Source: Kappaphycus alvarezii (taxonomy: Eukaryota; Rhodophyta; Florideophyceae; Gigartinales; Solieriaceae). Taken from it: a stretch of 64,000 bases of DNA. Within the stretch, counting starts at the first letter, position 1; each line of letters starts with the position of its first letter. The position numbers and the translations under genes are program-made. This document shows positions 1,780 through 64,000 of the stretch, piece by piece. The DNA is taken from positions 62,001 through 126,000 of the forward strand of contig NADL03000146.1 of assembly GCA_002205965.3 (NCBI GenBank), read 5' to 3'. A model generated the notes under the pieces. The model searched no databases. It was not told the DNA's origin and was given only the letters and a program-made list of their open reading frames with translations.

Positions 1780-1850
1780 AATACCCTAATCCACTAAATC
1801 CTCTAAATCCCTAATCCACTAATCCCCTAAAACCCCTAAATCCCTAATCA
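1780..1850 (+). repeat. Degenerate telomere-like tract
   Basis: About 70 bases consist of imperfect repeats on CCCTAAT, CCTCTAAAT, CCCTAAA and CCCCTAAA. The plus strand is the C-rich strand. This matches the plant/algal TTTAGGG-type telomere motif seen from the complementary strand. The interruptions (ATCCACTA) show an old interstitial tract, not an active chromosome end. The surrounding sequence is ordinary and continues on both sides. Confidence 0.55.
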
Positions 1851-3450: not shown

Positions 3451-3489
3451 TACCTGTACAGTACTGTACATGCAGTACTGTACAGGTAC
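3451..3489. repeat. TACAGTAC/TACTGTAC palindrome cluster
   Basis: A near-perfect inverted repeat: CTGTACAGTACTGTACA is followed by a mirror copy ending in AGTACTGTACAG. The same GTAC-centred motif recurs across the window, especially in spacers between host genes and inside the interspersed repeat at 3594, 26590 and 33218. Confidence 0.6.
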
Positions 3490-3593
3490 GTCACTTTCGA
3501 ATGCGGCGGCTGGGACGTGCAAATTATCGAGAATGGTCATTTTTTTCACCAAACGGTTACTATTATTGGTGTCGGTCGTTATGTTGTGAGTTT

Positions 3594-3825
3594 AATTACG
3601 CGCATCCGACGCTCCGCCTACATATAAAGGCAAGCGCCGAAAATGCATGTGGCCAAAGGGCGGCCGGTGGTTCCTAGAAAACTAATAAATTTCAGCACTG
3701 TACAGTAGTCTAAAATATAAAAATAAATCGTACAGTACAGTATTGTATTGTCATGTACAGTACTGTACTTGAAAATAATTAAAAAATCTCAGAATCCAAC
3801 ATTTGTCCCCGTCAACTCTTAGTAA
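3594..3825 (+). repeat. Interspersed repeat R1, copy 1
   Basis: Shares a run of landmarks with 26590-26805 and 33218-33550. In order these are a CGCG..CC-AC block, 'AGGCAAGCGC', 'GGCCA' blocks, 'TTCCT..AA', 'TAATAAATTT', an AGTACTGTA/CACTGTACAGTA block, 'ATAATTAAAAAA', and finally 'CATTTGTCCC' (elsewhere 'GCGTTTGTCCC'). There is no coding capacity. GTAC palindromes at 3692-3770 lie inside it. Probably a short non-autonomous element; ends not determined. Confidence 0.5.
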
Positions 3826-33217: not shown

Positions 33218-33550
33218 TCACCCGCCATTTACTCGCGTGTAACCGACACTTAGCCTGCGTACATACAGGCAAGCGCGGCGTGTAGCCAATAATGGCCAGG
33301 TCTTCCTGAAGGATAATAAATTGGAGTACTGTAGCATAAATATAACCCGTACGGTACAATACGGAGGTCGATGATAACTTTATGGCATCAGTAGAACGGG
33401 TGTCCGCTGCAGGATCCGACTATACTGCTAGCTAAGTGCTAACCGGTTGTCCACGTCGGCCACGTGCAGCGGTCCGTACAGTACAGTACTGTGCTGTACT
33501 TTATATAGTAAAAAAAAACAATCACCAACGCAGCGTTTGTCCCAACAAAG
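33218..33550 (+). repeat. Interspersed repeat R1, copy 3
   Basis: Has 'TTACTCGCGTGTAACCGACA', 'GGCAAGCGCGGCG', 'CCAATAATGGCCAGG', 'TAATAAATT.GAGTACTGTAG', 'CGTACAGTACAGTACTGTGC' and 'CGCAGCGTTTGTCCC', as in copies 1 and 2. About 100 bases longer than copy 2 because of sequence around 33365-33470. Non-coding. Confidence 0.6.
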
Positions 33551-34163
33551 TTCGTCAATTTGCATTTTTTATTTGCTATCGGAAAAGCGATGCTGGTGAG
33601 GGCAGGTGACCGATTACCCCCCAATCCGACACTTCTCGCATACCGATCGAATTTTGGCATTAGATCTGAAATTACAGTCTACACAGCGGTGTACAGCAAA
33701 GAACACGCAAAATGAAAAATGAGTATACAATAGTACAGTAGTTTACTGTAACAAAATTCATCACTGCTGCACTACAAAAATGAGCACTGCTTCATCTCTC
33801 TCTAGAGAGAGAATCGACTGTTTGGGAACATATGATGCGTATGGTACTGCACTACAAGCTTGTTGTGGGTGAATTTAGTAAGACTTAATTCATCGCATCG
33901 AAGCCGAGGCGTAGAAATTATGGTGGCATGGATACGCTCTCACTATGCCAGGAGCTGTTGCTCCGAAGACCCGTGCCCACGGTTTGCGTCTATTCTCGTG
34001 AACTAAACAGGCTCATCGTTGAAAGTAGCACCTCGTTAATCCTCGCGATTTATTAGGAGACGGTACGCTGAACATGCATCGGAAAGACCGCCACCGTCCC
34101 AAACAGCCCGTTTCTCTTCGGCATCACCAGTCAACTCATTTGTACAGGAAGACCGCTTGTGCA
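33551..34163. other. Spacer downstream of the coiled-coil gene
   Basis: Holds TACAGTA motifs near 33732-33752 and a TCTCTCTCTAGAGAGAGA palindrome at about 33796-33813. No gene recognised. Presumably contains the 3' untranslated end of the minus-strand gene that follows. Confidence 0.45.
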
Positions 34164-37100: not shown

Positions 37101-38655
37101 GAGTTCTTCGTCATGTGCCTTCCGTAGTCCGTCGACCTCAGCAGCATGCTTTTGTGCAAGGGCATCCTCAAGCTCCTTGCGAGACCGCTCCAATTCAGCT
37201 TGATGGTCCGCTTTCATGGAAGTCACTTGTTTCTCAACAGCGTCATCAATAGCAAGCTTCCCCTCGGCAGATAAGCGGGATATCTCCTGTTGATGACTCT
37301 CTTTTAACATTTCCAATTCTCGCTGCAGCACCCCCTTAGCATCCTCCTCTGCCTTTCTTTTTGCATTTTCAAGGCCCTCTAGATGCGCGGCCCTGTCCTT
37401 TTCAAGGCGCTCAGTTGCAGCGGTAAGCGCCGCACTGCGTTCGTCCAGCAAAGTACCACGCTCTGCAAGCTGTTTCTTCAAGTCCTCCACCGCTTCGCGT
37501 AACCCTTCCGCATTATCCTTCTCATGCTTCAATGCATCCTCTGTCTCTTTTAATGTGGTCTGCGCTTTCCCATTGAAGCCCCAACTCTGCCAGTGTCTTT
37601 GCCTTGCTCTCTAGCAAAGCCGAGTTTCTGGAATAAACTTCTTTGCTTTGTCTCCTTTCGTTGTCTAATTCTGCCTGCAATTCATCACGCTCTTTTTCCA
37701 AACTGTGCACCTGCTCCCTATGATTCGTAGCACCATCACCGCCCGCACCAGCTGCAACGCCTACCTTTTTTTGCAATTCCTCGTGCTCATTCCTCAAGTT
37801 ATTGTACCAGGCTGCTAGGCGACTATAGGTTTCCTTGATCCTAGCAGCATGGGCGACATGAGCGTCAACCTTTCTGACAGAATCTGCGCGCTCCCTCTCC
37901 AGTAGGGCATTGGATTGTTCCAAAGCGCGAACCTTGTCCTTGAGGGTGACGACATCTTCCGCGGCAGCCTTTGCTGCCATCTTTGCGGTCTGTTTGACAA
38001 CGAGATCTAATTGCTCAGTGGAGGCAGCCAAGCGTTCTATGCGCTCGTCCCTCTCTCGCACCTCGTCTTTCAAACGCTCCAACTGATCGATGTTTGCACC
38101 GACGCCTGCATTCATCTCGTTTGCAATAGCATTCATCCAATGGGGTCAAAAAATTCTCACCGATAGCCTTGACACTCAAGACGACGCCCGCAGTAATACC
38201 GGCGGTAAAAGAAATATCGGTGGTAATGTTCTTCATTCCACCCTGAACAATGCGATGCAAAAATGCGGCAACATCAAAGCAGCATTAGCGACGGGGGTAG
38301 ACTGTGAGCCTTCAGTTGGATCCGTAGCGGCCAAAATAAGCTCTGTTTGCAGAGGCTCTGCAGAATCATCGGAGACAAACGTGGTACCCAGGCGTTTGAC
38401 GCTAGCGTAAAAGCCCATTCGACCTGAAAAGGCATGCGTTTCCGGCTGAATGGACTGTGCAGAAGTGTGTTTGACTTCCTTGGAGGCGCGAAGCCATCGG
38501 AAGGAATATTGTACAGGGTGGGGGAAAGATGGGCGCCTTGTAAGGATTTGACTTGAAGAATCATGCGAATGTAGGTGACGTTTGAGGAGGCGAGGGTGGG
38601 GATGTGGGGGACGTGGATGGGCTCGCGCGCGGGAGGGAACGGTCGCGGCGGCCAT
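34164..38655 (-). CDS. Long coiled-coil protein with leader and one membrane segment
   Basis: Successive minus-strand frames (38655-38233, 38260-38015, 38136-37522, 37532-37023, 37083-35986, 35915-35643, 35719-35435, 35086-34748, 34685-34164) join into one product of about 1,490 residues. ATG 38655 sits in a strong context (AAAAAATGGCC). The leader (residues 1-60) is rich in Arg, His, Pro and Ser and lacks acidic residues, as in organelle presequences. Near residue 140 comes one hydrophobic segment ('FTAGITAGVVLSVKAIG'), then about 1,300 residues of Glu/Lys/Arg/Leu heptads ('RDERIERLAASTEQLDLVV'). This layout recalls plant MFP1, a thylakoid-anchored coiled-coil protein, but golgin or mitochondrial proteins fit equally; coiled coils cannot prove orthology. 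Eight frame changes are needed, e.g. in a GGGAAA run near 37560. Confidence 0.7.
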
Positions 38656-39720
38656 TTTTTGTGGGGGTGAGATGTGGGTCGAGGTGCGTTGAGTATGTGA
38701 CAGAGTGGGTGGGGGGGAATGGAAGGTTGGAATGAGGGGGGGTAGGGAGGTTGGACGAGGGGAGGTTGTGGGATGGATGTGGCGGAAGACGTGAAGGGTA
38801 GATGAGAGGACCAAAGTGCGGTTGATGGGATGGGCGGATGGGGCGAATGGGCGAATGGGGCGAATGGGAGAAGTGCAGACTGCGAGTGGGACAAATTATG
38901 TATCAAGCGGTCGACAAATCTAGTGGTTGGTTGGGTACAATGTTGTACAACACGGTACAAATGGTACAATATTGTTGTTGAAAGAAAGCTCCAAAACAGC
39001 CGCATTTGATGATTTTGTGCCTCTATTTGCGGCTCACCAAAAATTACTTTTCTATAGGATACGTGTACAATTGCTGACGATTTGTTTGCAGACCCATCTG
39101 CACTTTGAGCGCAACGTGATGGCCGAGTAACACCTGCATCTATCGAAAAAGATACTTTTTCAAAGAGACGCCGCGGTGTCCGAGGGAATTGCATAGTTTC
39201 GGTACACTTGTTTTTGCCCACTGCAGTCCGCAAAGGCGGAATCGTCCCGACAATACAGCTTAATGCATGCTTCGAATCAGCTTTATTGAAAAAAAATTTC
39301 GCTACTCTGTCAGATTCCTCATAATTTTGCATTTTTGCCACCATTCAATTGGTAGACGCAATGCAAATCACCGTGATATCACCTACACTGCACTAGGTCG
39401 GGCTTGCCGTTTTCGTGATTCCATATCATTCCCAAAATATCAAATTTCAGAAAAAATTGTACAGCATCTAGCAAACATTTTCTCAAAATAGACAACAATG
39501 CATGATTGTTTTACTGTAAGGTTGAAAATGCAACTGTAAGATTTCCATTCCAAGAAAGCCCCGGATCTTGAAAGCACAGTTCAGTACAGTACGTACATAC
39601 TGTACAGTCTACAACTGCAACCAGAATTGCTTACGGTCACTACCATTCTGTTTTGCCAACATAAAACTATAGCCATTCAATACAATCCATCTATCGTCAA
39701 TTTCGTTCCGCTCCTGCTCC
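38656..39720. promoter_or_regulatory. Divergent spacer between coiled-coil gene and Rab3GAP2 gene
   Basis: About 1 kb between two gene starts. At about 38826-38877 a short tandem repeat of (G)GGCGAATGGG occurs. At 39577-39608 lies a GTAC palindrome cluster (CAGTACAGTACGTACATACTGTACAG). No clear TATA box. A minus-strand frame through 38274-39344 runs past the start chosen for the coiled-coil gene, but it has no motif. Confidence 0.45.
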
Positions 39721-43776: not shown

Positions 43777-44629
43777 TCAAGCTGATGGCGAGGCAAACGT
43801 TCTCGCACGATCAGTAAGGATGGACTCGGCAATATTCATGTCCTCGGGAGTTGTCAACTTGATGTTGGTGTATTCGCCCATTGTTATCTGACGGCTCGCC
43901 CAGTTGCTCGATAATGGAAACATCATCAGTTACCTCAAGGCCTTCCGCGTGTACCTTTGCAAACCCCCGTTTCAACAAGGCTGGGTTTATGACTTGAGGT
44001 GTTTGAATTTCCCAGAGACGATTCCGCGGGATAGTGCGCAAAACAAATTTACCATCCTCGCTCTCCTTGATGGTTGCTTTGGAAGGGACACCGAGCACAG
44101 CAGCGCCATGTGTGTGTGCATCACGGAGGACATCGCGGACGTTTTGAGGGGTAACAAGGGGACGGGCGGCGTCATGGATACAGACCAAGGAGGTATTGTC
44201 GCGTACATGGGACAGACCGTTGTAGACCGAATCCTGACGTTCTTTGCCAGGAGATGCGAATGAGAATTGAGATGGGAGAGTTTGGAATAATGGGAGAAGA
44301 GGGATGGTAGGAATCATCGAGGACGAGAATAATTTGCCAGACCTCCGACATGGCGGCGAAGAGCTGAAGAGAATGGTCGAGCACGGGGATTCCAGCAGAG
44401 GGAGGAGCTGTTTCGGACGATCGGCTTGCATGCGTTTGCCGGAGCCGCCGGCGAGGAGAATGACGGAGACATTCTGAAGAGGGGGGAGAGAGGCCCGGAT
44501 GATGGTGGGGGTGAGGTGAGAGCGGTGTTTGGATGGATGGGTTGGACTACGGAATCTCGAAGGGAGGGTTGCGGAGGAATGGATTTTCGGGTGGAATGTG
44601 CAGGGATAGGCATGGAGGGAGTGAAGCAC
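43777..44629 (-). CDS. ispD: 2-C-methyl-D-erythritol 4-phosphate cytidylyltransferase, plastid
   Basis: It joins MEP with CTP to give CDP-methylerythritol, the third step of the plastid MEP pathway. Residues 1-50 are Ser/Pro/Arg/His-rich without acidic residues, as in a transit peptide. Next come 'VSVILLAGGSGKRM' (nucleotide-binding loop, residues 54-67), 'RPKQLLPL', 'ASPGKERQDSVYNGL', 'CIHDAARPLV', 'AAVLGVPSKATIKE', 'LWEIQTPQVI', 'GLEVTDDVSI' and, in another frame, 'TMGEYTNIKLTTPEDM'. These are very close to plant IspD. Three frame changes occur: at about 44391 (a G run short by one base), about 44265 (return) and about 43890; the true stop is the TGA at 43777. ATG 44629 is chosen; ATG 44649 in another frame is possible if a further indel lies in the leader. 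Length 284 codons, normal for the mature enzyme plus leader. Confidence 0.9.
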
Positions 44630-44977
44630 GCGAAGTTTGCACGAGTCATGTTGACGCGATAATTCGGATAGGGCTTGGGAGTGGGATTGATTTTAGAGGA
44701 GCAACTCGAGGAGGCTTACTAACAGTCGAGTGCTGTTACTGTATCGATGGAGGTTGCATTCTGCGTAGCTGTGATAACGTGGGGATGCGTTCCCATTTTA
44801 CGAGGTTACTGTGGCCAGATACGGTGGCAGTGCCTTGCACTGCCTTGCTACTGGTCCATTGCCAGCGTAAAGTCAACGGCTGCCCACGATGGACAGCTGT
44901 GTGACGTGTCACCTAGAGCGCAGTTTTCAGTCATGAGTGCCTACCGAACTGTCAGTGAAATCATTACTTTTATCACT
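44630..44977. promoter_or_regulatory. Upstream region of IspD
   Basis: Short frames only. Probably promoter of ispD on the minus strand; no TATA box seen. The GTAC palindrome cluster follows at 44978. Confidence 0.35.
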
Positions 44978-45034
44978 TACAGTACTGTATGTACTGTACA
45001 GTATGTACTGTGCTGCACTGCACTGGACAGTATG
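44978..45034. repeat. TACTGTAC palindrome cluster
   Basis: Five GTAC-centred half motifs in 57 bases (ACAGTACTGTATGTACTGTACAGTATGTACTGTG). Same motif as in the other host spacers. Confidence 0.6.
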
Positions 45035-46925: not shown

Positions 46926-47402
46926 GATTCGATGTGGAATGTGAGGAGGACAGCTTGGGTTGAGTGAGTGAGAGGGGAGGGGCAAGGACAAAGGAGCGTA
47001 TTACTGACGACTTGTTCTACAAAAGCGGGATGAGGCACAACAAATAAGGTACTGTACTGTACGCTTGAAAAAAAGAAAACGAATCGTGGGGATCAATTAC
47101 AGGTACAGTATTGTACTGTACTGTACATTCGCCCGATGCATTGCGGCTTGGCGCCCGATGCAGTCAATGCATTCGAGTCGATTTTGATCCAAGAACATCC
47201 CAAAAGTTATCTCAAAAACCGGCAATAAATATTTAACAAAACCATAATGCTACATATTCAGTAATTACTGTACTGTACAGTACAGCACTTGCAATACAAT
47301 TGTTGCGTTGCAATTTGCAGTCTGCGGAATGGGCTACTTGAATAAATGTACATGCATATACTGTAGCTGACATTTGCCGGCTGCTGTGGAGCCCTGAGGA
47401 CA
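46926..47402. repeat. Spacer with three TACTGTAC palindrome clusters
   Basis: Clusters at 47048-47063 (TACTGTACTGTACG), 47102-47127 (TACAGTATTGTACTGTACTGTACA) and 47265-47286 (TTACTGTACTGTACAGTACAG). It lies upstream of the dynactin-like gene, so the clusters are in its promoter side. Confidence 0.6.
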
Positions 47403-48479: not shown

Positions 48480-48685
48480 GCACATACTGTACGGGACATA
48501 TAGGGAAAAATTGGGGGTTAATTTACTGTGGTAGAGTATGTGGGTTGGTACCCAGTAAATTTGTACCGGAGCATACATATTACAGTGATAAAACACCGTA
48601 ACGAGACATGTTGGCTAAAACTCGTAGAGTCACATACAGTACACTGTATACTGTAGCATAGAGTACTGTACAGTATGGTCAAGAA
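48480..48685. repeat. TACAGTAC/TACTGTAC palindromes downstream of LINE fragment
   Basis: ATACTGTACGG near 48484 and a denser cluster at 48636-48676 (ACATACAGTACACTGTATACTGTAG, then AGTACTGTACAGTA). Confidence 0.5.
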
Positions 48686-50180
48686 GTGGGGGTATTCGCT
48701 CTATTCCTCAAAAGGTGAAGGCGTCGTGGAAGACCAGCGTCTTGATGCCATGCAGCTCATAGCGCTGCCGATAAATTCATACCTTGGCGTAATGTGGTCA
48801 CTTATCCAGAATCTGTCCTGAAACAGATGGACGCGTGATCGCTAGGTAGGGAATATGCTAGTGTTTGCAGCAACCCCCTATTGCCGATTAGGGTGACGTT
48901 TGTCAAAATGTTATAAACATGCGACAATATGTATGCTGAAAACCAGTTGACTCGGCGTTTGGGAAGCCACATGTCCATTCCTGTTACATACTATTCATAG
49001 AAGAGGCAGCAGCCACACTCCTGTGCAACCCCAAATGCTTTCTTGAAGCCCAACCCTATAAAACACGCACTTGCGTCATCGAGGTCATGTCACGCACCAA
49101 TCACTGCTAAAAAGCGCCGGCGCCGCCCTTGGGTACCCCGTGCCCTCTGCTAAAGCACAATCCGGCAACGTCAATAATACCCTCCGGAGCACGACAACTC
49201 TGCATCGATATTGACACACGCCCATTACCGGGACAGGTTGCACCCACATTGGCAACCACGCTCTGTCATGGAAATCATACCTCGCGGTCATCGGCCGCGG
49301 TAGTAACGTTGGTTATCCCATTGCAATGTGCTTTCTAATCCTTTCGAGTCATGTAAGACAGCGTCAAGACCTGTGCGGTGGTCCGCAGTTGGATTTCCGT
49401 AGAGTTGATGTGTGTTGGTTCGAGGTACCGCCCCTCCTGCCTCTGGCGCTGTGGCTAACAAAGCAACGGGCCATAATGTTACGGCCTGGGGCTGTTTTGG
49501 TGAACGCTTGGCACGGGTGGTACCGAAAGCAGCTACGAGCCAACCTGGTAAAGCCGGCATTGGATCCCGAGGTTGATTGCTGTGCCAGTTGGCGTTCAAA
49601 AGGTGTGGTGATGTGGTGCTTCATCACGTGTTGGTGTGAGTTTATTGTGTTACATGCTTCCCATATTGTTTTTAAGACCTCTGTGTGCTTGGTCGACGCG
49701 AGGCATCCAATTGGGAAGCTGTTTGTTTGCTCGATTTGATCAACTGCATATAGAGATGGCAGTCGATTGACGTGGACCAACATTTGCGAAACCTTTCGAG
49801 GAAATTTAGGTGCAGCGCAGCGACTCCCAACGTTTTCGGAACTAAAGTTTTCTCTGAGCATAGAGATTAAAATCAAACACTTTTGCAAACAGATACCTGT
49901 TTTAATTATTAGCAAACTATCCAAGGCCTTCGTCGACGACTGTTGAGGGACGAGACGGGGTAATTCGGTCCTTGGTCTAAGGTTGTTGATTGCTAACACG
50001 GATACTCAAGGATAATAGCCATGGAGCACGGTACAGCAATGCGCGACAAAAGGGTTGAAGAAAGGTACGGAAGAATGAAGAATGAGGATAGGAAACTTTT
50101 TTTGTTAAAATGAACGTGACTAGTAAATTTCCCCACTTATGGCACGCTCCACGTGGCAATGCAATTTGTGTCTGCAATAG
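48686..50180. other. No recognisable gene
   Basis: Frames up to 211 codons overlap on both strands (minus 49364-49999, plus 49326-49739) without motif. A CCTATAAAACACGC TATA-like box lies near 49056-49069, followed only by an eight-codon frame. Bases 49600-49740 and 49850-49930 are AT-rich. Possibly an old element. Confidence 0.35.
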
Positions 50181-50268
50181 AGTACAGTAAATTAGCTTAA
50201 TCATGTACTGTACTGTACTGTACAGTTGCAAAGGGCCAAGTACATTATAATACTAATACTGTACATGA
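50181..50268. repeat. TACTGTAC palindrome cluster upstream of secreted-protein gene
   Basis: ATCATGTACTGTACTGTAC, CTGTACAG and later AATACTGTACATGAT; the outer ATCATGTAC and GTACATGAT form an inverted repeat of about 85 bases. It is about 380 bases before the start codon of the next gene. Confidence 0.55.
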
Positions 50269-52739: not shown

Positions 52740-53739
52740 CTAGTAGTTTATTTTGCCTCCATTCGCGTTGAGAACTTCGACGCACCTTTTGTGGATCGAC
52801 TTAATTAGTTTCTGAGTCGCATTTTTCTCGATTTGGGCCCATTTTTGGCCAATTGCCACTTTTAAAGCGGAAACTGAGTCAAACTTCCTTCCATTACTGT
52901 AAAAAGCCCGCACCAAGATATCCCATACCGTAAGTTTTCGATTGGGTTTAGGTCTGGGGACCGTGCAGGCCAATCCATTACAGTAATGTCCTTCTCAGAA
53001 AGCCATGCCTTTGTATGCTGAGACACATGGATAGGGGTATTATCTTGCTGAAACATCCAATCAAATCCACCGTTTAATGGCCGCAAAATCTAATATATTA
53101 TACTCCAATGTCCTACAGTAACTTGCACACACCTGCTTTCCATTCAAATAACAATTAGACACATGTCAAATTAAGAGAAGCAAGCCCAAATCATAACTGG
53201 ATCCCACCATTTTGACGCTTGGCCAATAGCCTCTTCCTTACTAATATCATGCCAGTAATACTGAAAACCGTCTGGCCCGTCCAAATTTAACTTTTTTCAT
53301 CCGAAAAAACTCTTTCTTCCAATCATTCAGTTTTTCGCCCGCGATCTCCGTAGTTTAATCAAAACAAGTCTTGTTTTTTTGGGCTGCGGTAAGGAGCGGA
53401 ATCTATTTAATCTTCTTGTACGTAAGAGTTCTTGTTGCACGTAATAACTGCTGCAATCTCTTCTAGCTATTAGCAAATCCAAGGCGGTGCAGCACCGTCC
53501 CGAATTTTTCTCACTCTTGTGCGCCTGTCTTAGTAGATTTAATCTTTCAGTGGGAGATTTTTTTGGCGGCGTCCGCTGCTTTTTCTTTTGCCATACTTCT
53601 CCCGCGGCTTGGATAAATGTCGACACTACCTGCTTAGGGCGATTAATTTTCGATGCAATAGAATCAATGCTCTCCCCGGCACACCTCATCCTCATAATTC
53701 TTCTTTTTCTTGATCCGTCAGGGACCTTCCGCGAGGCAT
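52740..53739 (-). pseudogene. Tc1/mariner-type transposase
   Basis: ATG 53739 starts 'MPRGRSLTDQEK', followed by 'AGESIDSIASKINRPKQVV' (helix-turn-helix, Tc3 type) in frame 53327-53695. The catalytic core is in 52862-53086: 'FQQDNTPIHVSQHTKAWL' (second Asp, QDna..H) and 'MDWPARSPDLNPIENL' (third acidic residue, Glu). The C-terminal tail in another frame (52740-52973) reads 'DSVSALKVAIGQKWAQI' and 'KLIKSIHKRCVEVLNANGG'. The first catalytic Asp region, about 53.1-53.3 kb, is disrupted. Length 1 kb is normal for the family. It cuts and pastes DNA between TA sites. Several frameshifts; no terminal repeats seen. Confidence 0.8.
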
Positions 53740-54900
53740 TTTGTTGATGGGTATTCGTCGTTCTCTGCCGTTTAGATACTATTTGTAGTCGGTATTGTTA
53801 TTTAAAGTGTATACCAGAGTATTTTACTGTAAAGTTGCATTTCATACCCTGGGCTTTGCGTCTCATGTGTAATTCTCAGGTAAAGGGGTTATTTCTGAGT
53901 TTTGAGTGGAATGAAAAGTTCAGTATTTTACAAACGTGAAAGACGAAAGATGACCGGAAAATGGAGAAATTATGGGGAATGTACTTTTTCACTGTATTGA
54001 AAGTCTTATGCATCATGATCGGTCAATTTAGTGTCGGTGGTTGCCCTCTCGTGCTCGATTCTTGAGAAGAATACTTTCGCATCCTGTTCATGTCTTTCGA
54101 TTTGGCAGAAGTCAGGCTTTAAAAGCAGAGTGACTGTCCCATTGGAACAAATCATATCAATTTTGAAAGTACACCCTAAGGACGATACAAACAAGTGTTT
54201 CTGTGCCAGAGATAATCATTTTCTTTGCAAAGGAGATTAGTCTGTAGTGGTTACGACTTTCGCAGCACGCCGATCGTACCCGTATACAACAGGGGTATTT
54301 TTGATAGGTTATATATAGCGTAGGGATTAGGAATGGGGTAAGTAAAGAAATTTATGGAACGAGAAGGGCTGGGGCTAAACAATTCGGGAGGGGTGCGGAC
54401 TTGTGTTATCTACCCAGCGGAAACTTCCTTATTGTGCCTTGTCGGGAGAGAGGGAAGGAGAGGAGCGAGGCGGCGCGGGACATTGAAGCCGCACAGAGAC
54501 CTACTGTAATAGTGCTGACAGTAAGTCACGACAAGTAAATGGCTGCAATGCGCCAGAAATCCCGTTCTCAAATTGGTGCGGCGAGAGAACTTTACTGCAT
54601 TAGAGAACATATGCTACACGATATTTGTATATAATTTTCGTTTGTACCCGAAAAAATATGATACTTAGTTGCAAGATCGCTATGATTTACGCAATAAAAA
54701 CTTCGTATAACGACAAAAAGTACGGGCATGTGCGATTTCGGTTTTATTAAACCCTATTATCCCTGTGCTTTTGGAATATGAATGGGGTTTTTCAAGGAGC
54801 CCTTGGCTCATGATCCAACCCCACTTTACACTCTGCCGTACTGCGATTAAAGACTCTGTACACAAAAAGGTGAGCAAAACTAGCAATACAGACTGCTCAA
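53740..54900. other. No recognisable gene
   Basis: AT-rich; short frames (54006-54194, 54410-54610 minus) without motif. A TATATATAG element near 54310 and a G-rich stretch to 54480 could be part of an LTR or promoter; not resolved. Confidence 0.35.
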
Positions 54901-55884: not shown

Positions 55885-56753
55885 GTGTTTACTGAGAGAG
55901 GTTTATGCTATATCGCATTTAAACCTGGACCAGCCCTTATTTCGAGAGCACTTGAAATTCTCCTAAATGGAATTTTCTTTTACTTTATATTACCTTGCAA
56001 GCTCGGGAAGCGGACTTGGCTCCTCGGGACCCACCGCGAGGAATCTAGTTCAGCTAATTCAAACTCGAGCATATGAATTCCATCATTTGACCCTCTCTGT
56101 CCTTGCGTCCATCCTTTCATCATTCTCCCACTCGAAATTCCTTTCTTTCAATTTGATCTGTTTCTCCATTATTTCTTGAACTTGTTTAACCGGCCATCAT
56201 CCGATGTAGCTCTCTCCAGTTCAAACTTTAAGCGTGCTTCCGATAGTGATAGCTGCCTTTCCTCAAGTTCCATTCTTTTTTCACAGATTCAACAACCACT
56301 TGATTGACCCTGAAACATCTTCAAAAACTGCCTTCTTTTCACTGGTGTTCCTCTATCCTTCGTTAGTTTCTCATCACTGGATCTACCGCTTGCAGAATAT
56401 CCCTTGTGGCGCTCAAGCACGGCACTCCTGATTTCATCATATGTCATCTCTGTTAGTGCAATGCACCGAACTGGACCTAGAAAGGTAACGTCCCTATTTC
56501 GTAAGGTAATGACTACTCTGGTTCGAACCCGCTTTCCCTTTACTCCCTCTGCAGGGTAGTAGCTCGAGAGTTCTAGGAACTCAAGTGGTAGAGGCTTTGA
56601 CAAGCAAGGGGAAAGAACGGGCAAAAGAGAGTTAATACGCCTTTTGCGTAAGATACCACAAAGGGCAAGAGCCACCGATACTCGTCCTCGGCGCAACGGG
56701 ACACCAGGGATACGCGTCCTCCCTATAGGGACAAACACACAAAAAAGGTACAA
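55885..56753 (-). pseudogene. Charged, coiled-coil ORF of unknown function
   Basis: 154 codons (56289-56753) with 'MTYDEIRSAVLERHKGYSASG' and 'KRRQFLKMFQGQ' are followed in another frame by 'MELEERQLSLSEARLKFELERA' and 'KLKERNFEWENDERMDAR' (56050-56290). The ending resembles the charged helix at the C-terminus of Myb/SANT-like proteins that accompany Harbinger transposases, and it converges on the transposase at 54.9-55.8 kb. No SANT domain is visible, so the assignment stays open. Confidence 0.3.
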
Positions 56754-56759
56754 ACCTGA

Positions 56760-57152
56760 AAAATGAACAGGCTACTAAGCTAAGCTGGCAGTCGGGGGCC
56801 GAAGGGGATAGATGCTACTATAGCAGCAAGCACGGAGCCTTAGCGAAAAGGGGTGTGACGTTGCAGGAGCAACAACTAGAGCCAAACGGAATAAAGGTGA
56901 AGAAGTCGGTACCTTCGGTACCTGTTTACTCGTAGTGGCACTCAGGACAAACAGTAAATACTAAGATAGAAGTTAGCTCTTTAGGCGGGCTCACTGGGTA
57001 GGGCAATTGTCACTCTGTCAGCTTGTTAGCAATAAATAAATATCAGGGTCAGTTAGGGTACCACTACTAGGCCCAGTTGGGTCAGTCTACTGAAATAAGT
57101 GTCACTGCTAGGGTGCTAACACAAGATAGGGCACGTGCCTCCAACATGAAGC
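56760..57152. other. No gene; start of hairpin-rich segment
   Basis: No frame with motif. Contains GGTACC-TTC-GGTACC at 56908-56922 and other short inverted repeats. Repeated GTCAGTTAGGGTA / GCCCAGTTGGGTCAG phrases suggest an LTR-like or untranslated region, unproven. Confidence 0.35.
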
Positions 57153-58675
57153 TTGAAAAACGAGTACAAAGTTAGGTTATTAGAACTGTTAACTCAATTA
57201 CCGTGCTATTGCACTACATCTCCTCCTTCTGAGCACTCATGCTCTTTGAATCAGTTTGCAATCGTCGGGTTACGACAGGCAAAGCGTGGCGTTTTCGCCA
57301 AGTGTTTTAAAAAAAAGTTTTACCCGTGGTCGGGTGTTTGGTGGTTCGAAACTTTCGAGGGTATGACTGAGTATGAGCAAGACCGATTTGGTGAATTGTG
57401 GCGTAAGGCATTTCTCCAACAAGATCGTTTACGATCAGTTCCTGCTATCCATGGCCCAAAATTTCACACTACCTCCTCCACGGATGGGCGTTCAAATTTG
57501 GAGTCTTGAAAAGATTTCTTCTGTTCCTGGGTTTTCAGAACCAATGGGGAACGCTTTTGGGGCGATAGCGTTATGAGTCTGATGACAGAAAAAGTAACAC
57601 TTATCGAGGTGATCGACAAGCGTTGGCAAGGAGTGTGCGGAGTACGCCAAGAGGCGATGTTCTGGCAAGAACCGATATTTCCGTTGCACTTTTGCTTAGA
57701 AAAGCGCAATAATATACCGTTCTTCAAGAAAAAAGTGCGTCTTGAAAGCAGAATTCGCGACGAGACGGGATATTTTATCCCATATCAATGCCGTGAGGCA
57801 GAAGCTATCGCACCCCAGCATCTGGGTCGTCGCTATCACGTGAAACCTGCTTTCTGGCCTCGTATCGAGGTGTGACAAGGCTTTTGGTCCGAATTGGGCC
57901 CTGCATTGACCTATTTTGGGTCTTATCGTACTGTTTCCATGCATGGGATGGTGTCAGTTTTTGAAGGAGTGTTGTGTAAAGCACGCTGCTTTCCTTCTCT
58001 GGGATGTGTACGACACATGGAGAGTATCGTTCTTACCCGAGAAGTTGATATCCTTTATGAAGAACCTTGACATGAGCATTCCCCTTGGGGGAAAGGAAAA
58101 TGATGCCGAGTTAAAAAGGCTATGGACAAAGATCGCAATTGAAATTGCTCTCGCAAGGCGGTAATCGCCATAATTTCTCGCCGGGGCGGAACGATCCGAA
58201 TGCCGGTGATTATTTTTTCTATAATCCCTGTAAGGGAGTGCGCGTTACGCCATTGGAGGCGAGGGAAGGGCGAATTGCGCCAACTGAATATGCGGCCACG
58301 ATAGCCATCCATGATTCTTCTCTGGGTCCTTCTGCAGGACCAATCTCAGCCGTCATGGCCTTGGAGGGAGATTAACCTCCACCAGCTTCATCCGTAGATA
58401 TTAATGATAATCCTGACACGGGAGACAAATACGTCGAAGTCAACGAAACTGGGGCTGCAGTCGATAAAAACAAGGACGGTGACGTCGCAATGACAAATGT
58501 CGCTTCAGGCGATGCGGGTTCGTCAGCTGCTGCAACCACTGCGCCTTCTGAGGCTGATGTTGTTCGTGATTTTCTTAAGAATTTAAGTTACTCTGATGAA
58601 GAGTTGGATAAGCCTTTGGCCGACCTTACAACGCACTTCAAAAACGCAATGCAGAGCCTTCAGCAGTCCTGTTAA
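57153..58675 (+). pseudogene. ORF cluster of unknown function
   Basis: Frames 57153-57509, 57573-57875, 57916-58164, 58139-58375 and 58490-58675 follow each other on the plus strand and look like pieces of one protein. The first is aromatic and basic ('FYPWSGVWWFETFEG'); a middle piece has 'VRLESRIRDETGYFIPYQC'; then 'KGVRVTPLEAREGRIAPTEYAA'. The last is acidic with a low-complexity Ala/Ser/Thr run and 'VVRDFLKNLSYSDEELDKPL'. No domain recognised. Two stops and frame changes. Next to a Ty3/gypsy element it could be a Gag or captured gene, but nothing proves it. Confidence 0.35.
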
Positions 58676-58679
58676 TCCG

Positions 58680-60115
58680 GCCTTTCAAAACCGCAATCGA
58701 GCTCCAAGAGCTCTTAATCGTCGTGTTCCACATTGGGAACCTCTCCGTATTGTCTGCGTGTGCTCCTCATGACCAACTATGAATTCTGAAAATTCGATCT
58801 AGTTTGCCTGTTAGCGGCCATATTTCTACCCGGTAGGTCGTACATGTCTTGAATAAACTTTTTTTATATATGCGAACCAAACGTTCCTACTGTAGTGTAG
58901 TCTTGTAGCTCTTTGCTCGTTTGCGTAGAACGCGTAGAGTAGATGTCAATGGTGACAGGCCAGTATCGTTCTGTGGGATGGTTGCAGTAAAAGTTTCCAG
59001 CTTCTTTCCAATGTGCTGCACTAGAACAACTGCGTGTACTGCAGAACCGTCAGGGTTGTCAAGCTCTGCTAATGTAGTGTCCCGATTGAGGGTTCTTGCG
59101 GTTTCAGATTTCCAAGTTCACTTTTTTGTGGAGGTTTTAAACCTCTTGTGCAATACCAGTGGCATCATTAATATCATTGCCCTTGTTAGGCTGCTTTGTG
59201 GTCGTTACCTACGCTCCCTATTGTCCAGTCCGGACTGGGACATTGGTAACGACCGGTTTGTAACTGACACCACTGTGGTGCAACCATAGAGCTTCGTGCT
59301 CTGCGTTTCTACATATTTGATTCCGGAGAAATCGCGTAATCACTGGGTTCATTCACCCTTGAAAAATCCTATAGGACCGCTATTTACTTGTTTAGCCATG
59401 AGGGCCGTCTTTTATTTATTCAGCACTTTGGAGTGCAAGGGATTCGTTGAGCTACACGGCTCTCCTCCGTCTTGGGAACCAAGTCTTTCGTTATCATATT
59501 CAAGGACGTTGTTTTACAGACATCTACTCTCTGATAGGGCTCGACTTCAGCCTGGTTAAGTAATTACGCGGTGCGTTAACCCGTCACGGGCTATCTTGCT
59601 CTCTTCAGTGAGTTTATGTTTTCGTCTATTAAAGAAACTGACATATAGCGCCGGTCTTTGACCCAGAAATCCTTCTGGAGCATACAATTCGATGATCCCA
59701 AGGATCTATAGCCCCTTCGATGTCAACGGCGCTTCCACTTTACTGCCTACACAAAGCGTTGTGTTCAATCGCTTCGGTGGCCTTTTTGCTTTGTTCTCTG
59801 GTGGGCGATCGTGGTTTCCTTCCCCGAGGGGGTTGGGTTCGCAGTCCTCATTCAATCGAGTCGTGTCGAGATCTACAAGATACAGAGTGGGAGCATACCT
59901 GAGACCTACCAAATGTAACTGATATCAAAATTCCAAAAAGCAACGACTGTAACTCCTTTGACGAGGACCGTTTTGTTGTCTTTTGACAGACTTTGCGTCA
60001 TATTTCATCGACGAACATGCTCATTCTCCCATTTGGGGCTTCACATGACATCTCCAGCGTGACGTTGGCTCCCGTTGGGGTTTTTGTTGGCGTTGACGCT
60101 CGAGTTAAGTGAATT
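58680..60115. other. No recognised gene; dense inverted repeats
   Basis: Frames at 58921-59289 and 59296-59559 have no motif. Notable structures: GAGGTTT-T-AAACCTC (59131-59145), a 10-bp stem GGTCGTTACC/GGTAACGACC (59200-59254) enclosing the 14-bp palindrome CCAGTCCGGACTGG (59225-59238), CACCAC-T-GTGGTG (59268-59280) and CCAGAA-ATCC-TTCTGG (59663-59678). Confidence 0.5.
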
Positions 60116-60834
60116 TGTTACACACTATTTTGATGCGGGAGCTGTCAACACACTCAGGTCGGGTGCGAGCACTGTGTGCTCAACATAAAGTGTACTGCTA
60201 CAGTACTGTTTTCTCATCATACAACATGATCCATTACAGTGTGCTACTGCACATTATGACGTCACAAAAATATTCTTTTTGGAATAGCGCCACTTGGCGT
60301 TTGCACATAGCTGTTATAGATAAATGGTGGCGGATTCTATCCAATCCAAATAAAACAATCCAAATAAAACAATTTAATTAAAACTTGACTTGGGCGGCTC
60401 CCGGTTTAGGGTTACAATGGCCCTCTTGTATATGTGTCACCCATGGTGGGTTCCTCTTGAACATGGCGTTCTCAACGTCTATATTGTTTGAAAACGTATA
60501 TATACCGCTTCCCGTAGAGGGTAGCTGCACAATATATATGGAAAATCCACTTCTAAAAAGTGTATAAAGGATGCGGTCGACTAGCAAGTCGAGGGAACTT
60601 CTGCTTCATCAAGCAACAACCTCTCCCAGACTTCTTTAGTCTATTACTTCAACTATCCATCAAGAATATTATTCACCTTATTGTTGTTACAACTTTTGCA
60701 ATTGTGTTCAAATACTTTTGGTATCCCAAGAAGGAACATGACCTGGGCTCCATGAGCATTGACGTTATCCTTCATGGATGACATACGTGGTGCTGTAAGA
60801 GCAACTATCGGGTGCCAAAGGCAAACAATGAACA
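60116..60834 (-). repeat. Probable 3' LTR of the chromodomain Ty3/gypsy element
   Basis: On the minus strand the purine run ends three bases before TGTTCATTG (60834), a standard LTR start. Reading to lower coordinates, the next good terminus is ...GTAACA (60121-60116), giving 719 bp with TGTT...AACA ends. The partner LTR lies beyond the window, so the length is a guess. Confidence 0.4.
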
Positions 60835-60837
60835 TTA

Positions 60838-60849
60838 CCCTCCCCTCCT
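60838..60849 (-). promoter_or_regulatory. Polypurine tract of the Ty3/gypsy element
   Basis: The minus strand reads AGGAGGGGAGGG just before the proposed LTR start. Such a tract primes plus-strand synthesis in LTR elements; it also supports the orientation and 3' end. Confidence 0.55.
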
Positions 60850-60986
60850 GAAGAGGAAAATGCGATGTTGATTCACAACTTGCATTTCACTTAGCCATTA
60901 ACGGCCTCATTAATGTGTGCCGGTATCGGCAACTTCTTTCTTTTATAGTATGAAACTACTTTTGTTCGTTGCAAACTTATAATTGG

Positions 60987-61388
60987 TTACCATATAGCGG
61001 TGGCCGCAGGATAACCGTACCATCGGACTTGGTATAACATTTCGCCGTCGTCGGCCTTGCCGTGATCAACAATTTGATCAATAACGTATTCCGTTATGTC
61101 CTTTTGGACTTTGTCCTTTTCATTCATTGAACTTTTTCGTGTTTGACTTCGAGTCATTCTACGTGATGACTTACTAGTCGACTGATGTCGAGACTTCTTA
61201 GTCTCTTGCTGTTGTGGAGTGTCGATCACTCCTGGATCTACATCAACGTTATCACGTAGTGATATACATTGTAATTGACTCTCAATCTCTTTTTCATTCT
61301 TTTCTGAGTCCTCTGACTTTTTCGAGTCTTCTGCTTGAACTTTTGGGTCCTTGGCAGTTAATTTAGGGTCTGTTAACCTGTGTATCAC
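60987..61388 (-). pseudogene. Chromodomain and C-terminal tail of chromovirus integrase
   Basis: The frame ends with 'YVIDQIVDHGKADDGEMLYQ' and 'VRWYGYPAATAIW', matching the chromodomain pattern (y.VE.Ildhr...g...YlVkWkGyp...tWE); the stop follows the last Trp. Before it lies a long Lys/Ser/Glu-rich linker ('SSRRMTRSQTRKSSMNEK'), the usual basic spacer between integrase and chromodomain. The aromatic cage residues Y, W and the final W are kept. Confidence 0.75.
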
Positions 61389-61999
61389 ATGAGTAAGGTC
61401 TTCCTCTGGGGGTTTCCAAGTAGAAACTTCGAGGGGGAGGTCCGAAAGACCTCTCTATAATATGTCTTCTTCTGGAATACTTACTTGTAAAGTTCGACTT
61501 TGCAAAGTCGCTTGCCGTGTTGTCACTTCAGTGACTTCTGTAATGTGGGTGTTGGTACGCGGTTCATTTACCCTATCCAAGGGACTAGGAGCTAGCTCCA
61601 CTCGGTCTCTTGAGACTCGCTCCACCATGTCTCCATCTTGGATAACAACGGTGTCATCACAGACTTCTTTACCCTGTAGGGTCCTGTGGCGACCGGTGCT
61701 AGCTTATACTGGCGGTCTTGCTCTCAAAAGTAGTCCTTTCTGAGGGACACATAGGATCCTACTGGAATGTTGTACTTAGGCTTTCGAAGACGTGCATCGA
61801 AGTTACGTGTATAAAGTGCTTGTTTCTTCTATATAGAAGCACTGGCTGTGCGCATAAGGCGATGCAGCCATGATTTACACTTTTAAAAGTACTGTCTTTC
61901 TGTTCCAAAGTCTTCTAAAGAAGTTACGGCTTGTAATGTCAAGCTCTTTGGAGCTCTTGATAATGACAACTCAAAAGGAGCTAGGGTCGTAGTCCTTTG

Positions 62000-62758
62000 G
62001 ACCTGAGTGTTGTATGCGTATGTCAACGCATCGGTGAACAAATCCCAGTCCTTTGGTGATCAGCGACATAGTGCCTCAAGGCAGCAATGATAGTTCTTTT
62101 GAACCTTTCTGCCTGGCCGTTGGCTTGGGCGTGGTACGTCGTTGTAAACGTATGACTGATTCCAAGGATCCTTGATACGTTCTGGAAGAACTTTGCCGAA
62201 ACTGCTTTCCGTTGTCGGAAACTAACTTGGCCGGTGGCCCATAGACAAAAACCCAATGTTACACAAATGCAAAGGCCATGGAAGCCGCGGTTATCCTCTT
62301 GAGAAGCACCGTTCGAACTAATTTCGAATAACGATCGGTTATTTTAAAAAGATAACGGTGACCACGTTTGGTATTGATCAATTCTCCAAGAATATCTATC
62401 GCAACAAACTCTAACGGAGCTTCTGGTGGAAATAACTTCAGCTCCTTACGGTTCTTCCGTAAATTGACCCGATTATGGGCGAATGCTGTACAATGGCGCA
62501 GTACGGCATAACACTCCAAGGCCATGGAGGGCCAGTAATAATCCTTCGATAGGGAATTGTACATTCGTCTCCTCCTGGGTGACCTGAGTTCTGGGCATAG
62601 TGCCCTATTCTTAATATTCTGTCTTGCAAAGACTTTAGAATGATAATAAGGATCCTGTTTGAGGATGTTCTACACAAGTGTCCTTCATAAGGTTTCGCAT
62701 CCATGGAGAACGGTATTTGTTCTCCGTTAACAAGTGTAGTCCTCAGAGTTTTACACAA
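62000..62758 (-). pseudogene. Chromovirus integrase
   Basis: 62438-62758 reads 'LRIGHYAQNSGHPGGDECT' (H..H region) and continues as 62259-62564 with 'KDYYWPSMALECYAVLRHCTAF', 'LKLFPPEAPLEFVAIDILGEL' (first catalytic Asp, in DILG) and 'YLFKITDRYSKLVRTVLL'. 62023-62256 then gives 'AKFFQNVSRILGISHTFTTTYHAQANGQAERFKRTI' in pieces (third catalytic Glu in QAER). The second Asp, SDNG, was not clearly seen (about 62220-62260). Frame changes occur. Confidence 0.75.
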
Positions 62759-62938
62759 TGGATCTGAATTTCTGTTTACGTACTAACTCTTCAGGGGTTA
62801 TGGCCAAAAACTCATTGAGTTTCGTCGGGCTCTGAAGAGAGAGTAACTTATCTACTGCTTCGTCGTAGATATCTAGGTCTTCTTTTGGAAGACCTTCTGG
62901 TTTATTCTACTACACATAGGAGACATGATGTCGTTTCT

Positions 62939-63415
62939 TCACATAAGAACATGGAACTCTTCTTTGACTTCAACAGTCGTTGCTCCCCCAGTCTCAAGAC
63001 GTGAGAGTGCATCTGCTTGGGTGTTAGCACGACCCTTCTTGTACTTGATTTCGAAGTCATATTCACTTAGACGTAGACGCCATCGAGTTAAAAGTCCTGA
63101 TGATTTCGTAACATTCATAAGCCATCTTAAGGATGCATGATCGGTATTCACAATGAACTTCTCCATCATCAAGTAAGGCCTTAATAGGTCTAATGCCCAT
63201 ACTGACGCTAGGCATTCTAATTCTGTAACAGAATATCTTGTCTCTACATCATGCAGTGTTCTTGAAAAGAAACCTAAATATTTTCGTTCACCATTAGGGT
63301 GAGTCTGAAATAACACAGCTCCAAGCTGTAACTTAGACGCATCTGTATCAAAAGAATATGGTAATCCTGGCTTCGTCAAAGCCAATAATGGTGGCGAAAG
63401 AGTCGTATCTTTCAA
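62939..63415 (-). pseudogene. Chromovirus RNase H
   Basis: 158 open codons. 'YSFDTDASKLQLGAVLFQ' carries the first Asp, 'FSRTLHDVETRYSVTELECLA' the Glu, 'FIVNTDHASLRWLM' the TDH Asp, and it ends with 'EYDFEIKYKKGRANTQADALSR' (yki.y..G..N..ADaLSR). All four acidic residues are present, so this domain alone looks intact. It would remove RNA from the cDNA hybrid. Confidence 0.85.
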
Positions 63416-63479
63416 CGTTTTGAACCATTGTTCCTCTGCGGGACCAAAAGTTCGTAAGTTAATTGGTTTTACTTTCCTA

Positions 63480-64000
63480 AGGAGTTTTTTGAAAGGATGC
63501 GCTCCACGCGTAAAATCCTAAATAAATCGTCTGTAGACGTTACACAAACATAAAAAGCTTCGTAGCTGAGTCTGAGTCTGAGGCATCTTTGCCTGTCGGA
63601 AAGCCGTAAGACGGACCTGATATATCTCTAGCCTTCCTGGCTTAATAACATAACCAAGATATTTGATCTTGTCCGTGAAAAATTCACACTTTTCTCAACT
63701 TGGGAGTTACTCCCGCCCTTTGAAGGGTCTCCAATATGTTATCCACATGTTGATGTGTTCCTCACCTGTCCGGAAAAAGATTATGAAATCATTCAGATAT
63801 ACGAGAAATGATGTCTACTTGTACTGTGACAGAAATATGTCGAGCGCACGTTGGAAAGTGGCTGGTGCATCGGTTAAACCAAATGGCATCCGCCTAAAAC
63901 GGTACAGTCCACTGTGACATGAGAATGCCGTCTTGTCTTGATCCTTTTTCGCAACTGGGATATGCCAATATCCCCAATTAGCATCTAACGCTTTGAAGAT
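63480..64000 (-). pseudogene. Chromovirus reverse transcriptase, YLDD changed to YLND
   Basis: From the window edge: 'FKALDANWGYWHIPVAKKD' (first catalytic Asp), 'RMPFGLTDAPATFQRALDI', then 'FLVYLNDFIIFF' at 63788-63799, where the first Asp of the YxDD box is Asn. Next comes 'FFTDKIKYLGYVI' and the thumb. The Asn would remove polymerase activity. A few stops lie nearby. The N-terminal fingers are outside the window. Confidence 0.8.

What the first reader, a model, noticed from the sequence alone, without database searches (positions are those of the whole stretch)
56900..64000. A 7-kb segment packed with consecutive short perfect hairpins, running through coding and non-coding parts
Seen: from about 56.9 kb to the right edge, perfect inverted repeats (stems 4-7 bp, loops 0-7) follow one another, often touching. 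Examples are 61081-61097 next to 61098-61109, and 61168-61179, 61179-61190 and 61190-61205 in a chain. In 61.0-64.0 kb I count about 20 stems of at least 6 bp, against about 4-6 expected by the simple 4^-n formula. The signal covers a chromovirus pol whose protein motifs are kept, an unknown ORF cluster of opposite strand and the spacer between. The other Ty3 element at 29-32 kb does not show it. It may reflect palindrome-making template switching during reverse transcription, selection for local RNA or DNA structure, or transfer from a hairpin-rich genome. I know of no described element class with this property.
Basis: partly seen in the sequence, partly recalled or inferred. Interest (0 to 1): 0.9.

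Follow-up and report, generated by a model that had tools for sequence, protein, structure and literature searches.

The report
Hairpin-studded retrotransposons in a red alga
A group of jumping genes in what looks like a red alga carries a short perfect hairpin about every 50 bases along most of its length, in a style that differs between families, and comparison of copies suggests the hairpins were kept by selection; this could be a packaging code, but its function is untested.

Summary
From 56.45 kb to the right edge lies part of one decayed Ty3/chromovirus LTR element (3' LTR, antisense gene, spacer, pol). It holds 99 perfect stems of at least 5 bp with loops 1-5, against 31.5 in dinucleotide shuffles; codon-preserving shuffles do not explain it (34 vs 11.2, 0 of 1000).

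Relatives in the same genome are richer: 217-228 stems per 9.9 kb against about 41 in three copies. Enrichment is 3.5-5.5x inside one copy with both LTRs and 1.3-1.5x outside. It is weak or absent in some families and strong in a distant clade. Loop length and arm composition are family-specific.

Hairpin arms change at about half the control rate, with few compensatory or multi-base one-arm changes in close pairs. Enrichment and arm conservation give similar selection strengths. This favours weak selection on each hairpin over template switching.

My reading: dispersed, family-specific, packaging-like sites read by an element protein, probably Gag. The selected array is well supported; reader and function are inferred. 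Against: strand preference is weak, and meaningless "complement" repeats are also raised.

The parts
56454..64000 (-). Hairpin-rich part of one Ty3/chromovirus LTR element (sense = minus strand); homology to relatives continues to about contig C145:128929, 2.9 kb beyond the window
   Evidence: 99 near stems (>=5 bp, loop 1-5) vs 31.5 expected, z 13; far stems 71 vs 74.5; best segment 56501-63750; homology limits
56457..57213 (-). 3' LTR, ends TGCAAT...ATTGCA
   Evidence: 56454-57218 is 79% identical to the LTR of the C460 copy, whose two LTRs are 97.2% identical; ends read by eye
57214..57231 (-). Likely polypurine tract next to the 3' LTR (pyrimidine-rich on +)
   Evidence: sequence read by eye
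57535..58675 (+). Remains of a broken antisense gene between pol and 3' LTR (approximate limits); an open 511-codon homologue is at L030:255-1787(-). About 0.8 kb present there and in L018 is missing here, judging by the alignment gap
   Evidence: frame 57510-57875; nucleotide homology 57540-58318 to L030 and 57526-58864 to L011; homologous ORFs in L030, L020, L011 by eye; no homologue in the protein database; for the L030 ORF no Pfam or PDB match
58676..60890 (.). Spacer between the antisense gene and pol; 57219-60890 as a whole (antisense gene plus spacer) has 46 near stems vs 15.2
60891..64000 (-). 3' part of decayed pol: RT end, RNase H, integrase, chromodomain (46 near stems vs 12.9); the lower limit is the stop read by eye
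   Evidence: tblastn map of homologues; stops and frames; hairpins
62939..63517 (-). RNase H frame, 192 codons open
   Evidence: PF17917 7.8e-31 and PF17919 1.4e-26
62259..62669 (-). Integrase zinc-binding region and start of core
   Evidence: PF17921 4.7e-05, slightly below its cut-off; 29 homologues of 62262-62669
60990..61088 (-). Chromodomain, first 33 of 53 profile positions before a stop
   Evidence: PF00385 4.6e-05, slightly below its cut-off; the L010 homologue passes it at 1.4e-08
61063..61264 (.). Example cluster of hairpins (61063-61080, 61081-61097, 61144-61156, 61178-61191, 61190-61205, 61216-61232, 61250-61264)
   Evidence: stem list

Best explanation
A clade of Ty3/chromovirus LTR retrotransposons in what looks like a red alga carries an element-wide array of short, perfect hairpins (mostly 5-6 bp, loops 3-5; about 20 per kb inside, 14 per kb in the LTRs). 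The array is maintained by weak selection on each hairpin while the element is alive and erodes after insertion. Because loop length, loop bases and arm composition differ between families, the hairpins are most likely low-affinity binding sites for an element-encoded, co-evolving nucleic-acid-binding protein, most plausibly Gag/nucleocapsid acting on the genomic RNA, so that many dispersed sites together drive packaging or compaction of the roughly 14 kb genome. SHOWN: real enrichment, confinement to the element in the copy with both LTRs, presence in relatives, family-specific style, slower change of arms, turnover of positions with density kept. Rough odds: element-bound array 0.97; selection rather than mutation bias 0.8; protein-read motif given selection 0.55; Gag/packaging given that 0.7. 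The confidence below is for the selected, protein-read array, with Gag as the likeliest reader.
For: Enrichment in relatives: of 20 fetched 9.3-9.9 kb stretches (19 other copies and the continuation of the window's own), 15 show at least 2.3x, 3 show 1.5-1.7x, 2 show 0.86x (stems >=5, loops 0-6); six reach 4.0-4.6x. In 8 pooled copies loops 1-5 are 3.3-6.6x, loop 0 1.6x, loop 6 1.3x, loops 7-20 0.7-1.15x. Bounded in the C460 copy: outside 1.34x and 1.51x, LTRs 3.5x and 3.65x, inside 4.0-5.5x. Coding constraint does not explain it: four L010 frames 4.0-5.6x and the L030 antisense ORF 3.15x over codon-preserving shuffles, 0 of 300 each. Family style: loop 3 12x but loop 5 1.8x in L020/L021; loop 5 10x in L010; C/T-rich 5' arms next to the loop in four tested groups of the main clade, G-rich in L031, L032, L033; preferred loop bases such as T2-G3-A4 in 5-base loops of L010/L014 and G1 in 3-base loops of L020/L021. 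Selection: arm substitution 0.043 vs 0.088 in far-stem arms in 6 close pairs; far-stem and mirror-repeat arms are hardly slowed (0.076-0.086 vs 0.081 outside). 2Ns from enrichment 1.5-1.6, from arm rates 1.7 (1.3 uncorrected). At greater divergence double changes restore pairing more often than in far stems (0.49 vs 0.37 and 0.47 vs 0.35). Hairpin-arm codons keep the family residue: 34 of 39 vs 77% of 159 outside at conservation >=0.7 for stems >=5 (for stems >=6 no difference, 0.81 of 16 vs 0.80 of 193). Dispersed packaging stem-loops with a shared motif are described for ssRNA viruses (PMC6281560, passages).
Against: No direct evidence that any protein binds these hairpins. Strand use is weakly resolved: G-U stems are slightly favoured over A-C in the first 6.3 kb and not in the 3' part; folding z-scores of both strands are similar, and substitutions to G-U are about as common as to A-C, unusual for a plain RNA role. 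A-rich flanks favour the sense strand but not over the antisense gene; loop bases lose their sense bias in the 3' part of the L010/L011 groups, though not of L020/L021. Families with little enrichment also look recently active (L022/L023 97.0% and L027/L028 99.4% identical), so hairpins are not needed for mobility as such; L022 also has a CCHC-like knuckle by eye. Close pairs show no compensatory excess (0.34 of double changes vs 0.38 in far stems). [quoted passage not shown] Copies are related and pairs were counted in both directions, so pooled counts overstate independence. Complement repeats at gap 0-6 are 1.84x in the window's copy; imposed hairpins reproduce only part of that (50 to 70 against 84 observed). 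In L031-L033 longer loops are raised too.
Confidence: 0.4

Rival explanations
1. Selection for short perfect hairpins as such, without a dedicated reader: element-wide structure that shields the RNA (or both sense and antisense RNAs) from RNAi, nucleases or sense-antisense annealing. The antisense gene makes transcripts of both strands plausible, and only Watson-Crick pairs fold in both strands.
For: Near-symmetry of the two strands and little G-U tolerance; hairpin positions turn over while density is kept (61%, 31% and 19% of stems kept in three identity bins); antisense gene present.
Against: Generic stability would also favour loops of 6-9 (thermodynamics recalled, not tested), but in the main clade enrichment falls to 1.3 at loop 6 and about 1 beyond. 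It does not predict family-specific loop lengths, loop bases or arm composition. Hairpin-poor families also carry antisense ORFs (L022, L027). Folding z-scores are modest, about -1.2 to -1.45 in the sense strand of three rich copies.
Confidence: 0.3
2. Mutation bias: reverse transcriptase (or host polymerase) folds back on short imperfect inverted repeats and makes them perfect (quasi-palindrome correction, template switching), so hairpins accumulate without function.
For: Perfect pairing with little G-U excess in the window's copy; loops 3-5 suit single-strand foldback; template switching is held to make or repair hairpins (PMC8794818, abstract and passages) and is offered for over-represented short inverted repeats (PMC6649704, discussion).
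Against: A host process is disfavoured: within the main clade the four copies on the longest end branches (0.16-0.20) have 2.7-3.3x, the nine others (0.05-0.13) 3.9-6.7x. For an RT process, correction should yield many compensatory pairs; 22 of 11903 in close copies. No excess of several changes in one arm. Arms change more slowly, not faster. Preferred loop bases, A-rich flanks and family-specific loop lengths are not expected.
Confidence: 0.12
3. A DNA-level role: hairpins in single-stranded cDNA, or cruciforms, that pause RT, promote strand transfer and recombination between co-packaged genomes, or act in integration.
For: Nearly strict Watson-Crick pairing, weak strand preference and a loop optimum at 3-5.
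Against: Sense-biased loop bases and A-rich flanks over gag-pol; it does not explain why related families lack the trait.
Confidence: 0.14
4. Statistical artefact of composition, codon usage or search bias.
For: The segment was picked by eye; complement repeats are also raised at short gaps, direct repeats at distance 9-11 too (12 vs 4.5).
Against: Far-loop control flat, dinucleotide and codon shuffles exceeded, and independently chosen relatives show it more strongly.
Confidence: 0.01

Closest known systems
Ty3/gypsy chromoviruses
   Same: RT, RNase H, integrase and chromodomain in that order; LTRs; CCHC-like knuckle in Gag by eye
   Different: Element-wide array of short perfect hairpins; about 14.4 kb; antisense gene 3' of pol
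Dispersed packaging-signal stem-loops of ssRNA viruses (MS2 and others; PMC6281560, passages)
   Same: Many dispersed short stem-loops sharing degenerate, family-specific loop and stem features
   Different: Here in an LTR retrotransposon, with dense, nearly strict Watson-Crick hairpins; strand not settled, protein binding untested
Genome-scale ordered RNA structure of RNA viruses (recalled)
   Same: Structure spread over coding and non-coding parts
   Different: Short perfect hairpins with loops of mostly 3-5; modest folding z-scores
Coding palindromes in nematomorph mitochondrial genes (PMC6649704, abstract and discussion)
   Same: Perfect inverted repeats inside conserved coding sequence
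   Different: Those are up to 284 bp and proposed to be kept by repeat conversion; here 4-7 bp, without the frequent compensatory pairs that conversion would leave
Retand elements with antisense ORFs (PMC11963269, abstract)
   Same: Long region between pol and 3' LTR with antisense ORF
   Different: Retand is a non-chromovirus plant lineage; no hairpin array is mentioned in the abstract

Membership tests
Ty3/gypsy chromovirus | RT-RNase H-integrase order with C-terminal chromodomain | tested here: met
   (the window's own zinc-binding and chromodomain hits lie just under Pfam cut-offs; the L010 homologues pass them)
Ty3/gypsy chromovirus | Two LTRs, TG...CA ends | tested here: met
   both LTRs found in the C460 copy; TG...CA ends read by eye in the window's 3' LTR only, whose 5' LTR was not found
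Dispersed packaging signals | Many dispersed stem-loops above chance with shared features | tested here: met
Dispersed packaging signals | Coat or Gag protein binds them and they promote assembly | not testable with these tools
   no binding data
Dispersed packaging signals | Sites lie on the genomic (sense) RNA strand | tested here: inconclusive
Template-switch (quasi-palindrome) product | Clustered changes in one arm or frequent compensatory pairs between close copies | tested here: not met
Genome-scale ordered RNA structure | Markedly lower folding energy than shuffled controls over the genome | tested here: inconclusive
   mean z -1.2 to -1.45 (sense) in three rich copies, -0.36 in a poor one
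Retand-type antisense-ORF element | Non-chromovirus lineage | tested here: not met
   chromodomain present
Retand-type antisense-ORF element | TRP28 domain in the antisense ORF | tested here: inconclusive
   no Pfam family found in the 510-residue ORF; whether this Pfam copy holds TRP28 was not checked

The most novel reading that the evidence does not exclude
These elements carry a distributed hairpin code: several hundred weakly selected, family-specific hairpins per genome that are read by the element's own Gag, so that packaging specificity is spread over the whole genome instead of one psi site. Sister families differ in code (loop 3 against loop 5, C/T-rich against G-rich 5' arms), as expected if code and reader co-evolve and let families in one nucleus tell their RNAs apart.
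Probability: 0.3. Interest if true: 0.95.

Novelty: new variant of a known kind. Interest (0 to 1): 0.85.

Why it matters
The listings of seven searches (open-access papers, top titles only) show no retrotransposon clade studded with short selected hairpins. If the hairpins are binding sites, packaging specificity in LTR elements can be distributed over the genome, and one genome with rich and poor, loop-3 and loop-5 families is a natural experiment on how nucleic-acid code and protein reader co-evolve. It is also a case where mutation bias and selection for structure can be told apart by counts.

Tried and rejected
Rejected: chance or composition; Rfam match (0 hits at gathering threshold); host-wide property (rest of window 1.17x; flanks of the C460 copy 1.34x and 1.51x); loci in viral or prokaryote collections (none confirmed); a common hairpin sequence in the window's copy (no dominant 4-mer, spacing cv 0.97); template switching as above. 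The complement-repeat excess was simulated and only partly explained. Stop codons in RNase H do not track hairpin loss cleanly (L014 3 stops at 5.6x, the window's copy 0 stops at 3.2x); end-branch length does better. Antisense gene: no homologue of the window's part, no PDB or Pfam match of the L030 ORF; no structure prediction was asked for, since loci from the fetch from genomes are not on that tool's list. A test of another retroelement group (Pfam PF07727) did not complete, as did a search with the antisense protein. Host name: red alga inferred from one named homologue (Agarophyton chilense; the other names in that list were a bacterial MAG, Drosophila and a hypothetical protein) and an IspD gene. 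The 336 Mb size reminds me of Kappaphycus alvarezii (recalled; none of the 8 papers listed mentions it).
Full report
CHECK. I counted maximal perfect inverted repeats and compared them with shuffles that keep dinucleotides within 500-base blocks. In 56900-64000 there are 47 stems of at least 6 bp (loop up to 7) against 12.5 expected; none of 100 shuffles reached that. The rest of the window has 131 against 96.0, and the Ty3 element at 29-32 kb 8 against 5.9. The best segment is 56501-63750. The excess lies at loops 0-6 and values from 7 to 60 are near expectation, an internal control that composition cannot pass. Stems of 2 or 3 bp are at expectation, those of 4-7 bp in excess. Codon-preserving shuffles of four pol frames give 11.2 against 34 (0 of 1000). 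Results against: direct complement repeats, which cannot pair in an ordinary way, are also 1.84x at gaps 0-6 and not beyond; imposing 100 hairpins on shuffled sequence raises them from 50 to 70, while 84 are seen, so only part is shown to be a by-product. Direct repeats at distance 9-11 are 12 against 4.5, and mirror repeats at gaps 7-30 are 1.2-1.5x.

WHAT IT IS. The minus strand encodes RT, RNase H, integrase and chromodomain of a Ty3 chromovirus, decayed by stops and frameshifts, with YLND at the RT motif. The window lies in a 336 Mb assembly as C145:62001-126000; the RNase H query gave 150 scored matches, one of them itself, out of 7016 candidates of a first look. A less decayed copy on C460 has two LTRs of 776 and 774 bp, 97.2% identical, 14.4 kb from end to end. 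Its LTR matches window 56454-57218 at 79%, so the left edge of the hairpin-rich segment is the end of the element (56457 by its TGCAAT end). Relatives share homology up to about C145:128929; no second LTR was found in the 19 kb stretch examined, so the window's copy looks truncated. The opposite-strand frame at 57.5-58.7 kb is the remains of an antisense gene; a 511-codon open version lies at L030:255-1787 on the minus strand and homologues in L011 and L020 (by eye).

THE TRAIT BELONGS TO THE ELEMENTS. I fetched 20 stretches (19 other copies chosen from the 150 listed, plus the continuation of the window's own). Stems of at least 5 bp with loops 0-6 are at least 2.3x in 15 of 20, 1.5-1.7x in 3 and 0.86x in 2. 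With 7 shorter stretches and the window's copy, 17 of 27 RNase H-centred regions are at or above 2.6x and 10 below, from 6.67x to 1.01x (loops 1-5). A tree of 27 rows needs at least three changes of the label; a distant clade (L031-L033, RNase H 45-50% identical to the window's) is rich, while closer families (L022-L024, L035) are at 1.4-2.0x. In the C460 copy the enrichment is 1.34x and 1.51x outside (z 2.2 and 3.3), 3.5x and 3.65x in the LTRs, and 4.0-5.5x inside. Codon-preserving shuffles are exceeded 4.0-5.6x in four sense frames of L010 and 3.15x in the L030 antisense frame, 0 of 300 in each; L031 pol is at 4.4x (its far stems are also up, 42 against 23.9), L022 at 1.9x and L027 at 1.13x. 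Within the main clade of 13 copies, the four on the longest end branches (the window's, L015, L016, L018; 0.16-0.20 changes per column) are at 2.7-3.3x and the nine others (0.05-0.13) at 3.9-6.7x, which suggests that hairpins erode after insertion. Stop codons in RNase H track this poorly (L014: 3 stops, 5.6x).

HAIRPIN STYLE. In eight pooled copies the enrichment is 6.6x, 5.3x and 5.2x at loops 3, 4 and 5, 4.2x and 3.3x at 1 and 2 (these may be loops of 3-4 whose end bases pair), 1.6x at 0 and 1.3x at 6. Families differ: L020/L021 prefer loop 3 (12x; loop 5 only 1.8x), L010 loop 5 (10x). The four tested groups of the main clade have C/T-rich 5' arms next to the loop; L031-L033 have G-rich ones, and there loops 7-10 are raised too in part. 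Far stems of the main clade show no such arm pattern. Arm composition reads the same on both strands and so says nothing about strand. Loop bases and A-rich flanks do: flanks favour the sense strand over gag-pol but not over the antisense gene, and loop bases lose the bias in the 3' part of the L010/L011 groups but not of L020/L021. G-U versus A-C stems, substitutions and folding energies give only weak strand information.

SELECTION OR MUTATION. Between close copies, arms of near stems (loops 3-5) differ at 0.043 per site, arms of far stems at 0.088 and other sites at 0.081 (six pairs, both directions). Mirror repeats are hardly slowed (0.076 against 0.081). The poor family L022-L024 shows a smaller slowing (0.064 against 0.085), in line with its weak enrichment. 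Perfect 5-bp windows are 6.4x and those with one internal mismatch 1.24x, which under mutation-selection balance means 2Ns about 1.6; the arm rates, corrected for an estimated 18% chance stems, give 1.7, uncorrected 1.3. The two estimates use different features of the same copies and agree, though stationarity and independence of copies are assumed. Template switching predicts compensatory pairs or several changes in one arm; 22 of 11903 stem pairs are compensatory (identity bin 0.85-0.97), and one-arm doubles number 37 against 50 with one change in each arm. At greater divergence double changes restore pairing in 0.49 and 0.47 of cases against 0.37 and 0.35 in far stems; in close pairs there is no such excess (0.34 against 0.38). 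Positions turn over (61%, 31%, 19% kept in three identity bins, against 35%, 13%, 4% of far stems) while density stays. In the window's pol, hairpin-arm codons keep the family residue at least as often as others (34 of 39 against 77% of 159 at conservation of 0.7 or more, 17 partly covered codons set aside; no difference for stems of 6 bp or more), so the hairpins probably predate its decay.

MECHANISM. Selection on many interchangeable hairpins with a family-specific style suggests a multi-site reader encoded by the element. Gag is the obvious candidate: in Ty3 the capsid has 540 CA copies (PMC6525542, passages), and the excess here, about 26 hairpins per kb in L010 counting stems of 4 bp, would put several hundred sites on a 14 kb RNA, the same order of magnitude. 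Dispersed packaging stem-loops are a published model for ssRNA viruses (PMC6281560, passages). This step is inference. Shielding against RNAi or sense-antisense pairing, and a DNA-level role, remain open.

NOVELTY. The listings of seven literature searches show no retrotransposon with such an array; only open-access papers were searched, and only the top titles and abstract starts were seen. The element class is known; its hairpin array looks new.

Noticed in passing
window, e.g. 3456-3761, 33476-33744, 39584-39605, 44978-45011, 47050-47285, 48485-50257: The motif TACTGTAC occurs 20 times against about 1 expected (its reverse complement GTACAGTA 17 times) and makes up several stems in the other palindrome peaks of the window; unrelated to the finding.
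   Followed up: partly
window 43814-44692 (-): IspD (MEP pathway) gene, PF01128 1.3e-36, in keeping with a plastid-bearing host.
   Followed up: no
window 1783-1849: Degenerate CCCTAAA-like short array, resembling interstitial telomere repeat.
   Followed up: no
window 53327-53797 (-): ORF that looks by eye like a Tc1/mariner-type transposase remnant; no family search was run.
   Followed up: no
L030:255-1787 (-): Open 511-codon antisense ORF between pol and 3' LTR, no Pfam or PDB match; L022 and L027 carry antisense ORFs of 391 and 394 codons downstream of pol.
   Followed up: partly
L031, L032, L033 (distant rich clade): Far stems are also raised (1.4-1.8x) and stems are often 6-8 bp by eye in L031, so this clade may have a somewhat different structure habit.
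   Followed up: no
window 34164-38145 (-): Long ORFs that read by eye as coiled-coil protein pieces.
   Followed up: no
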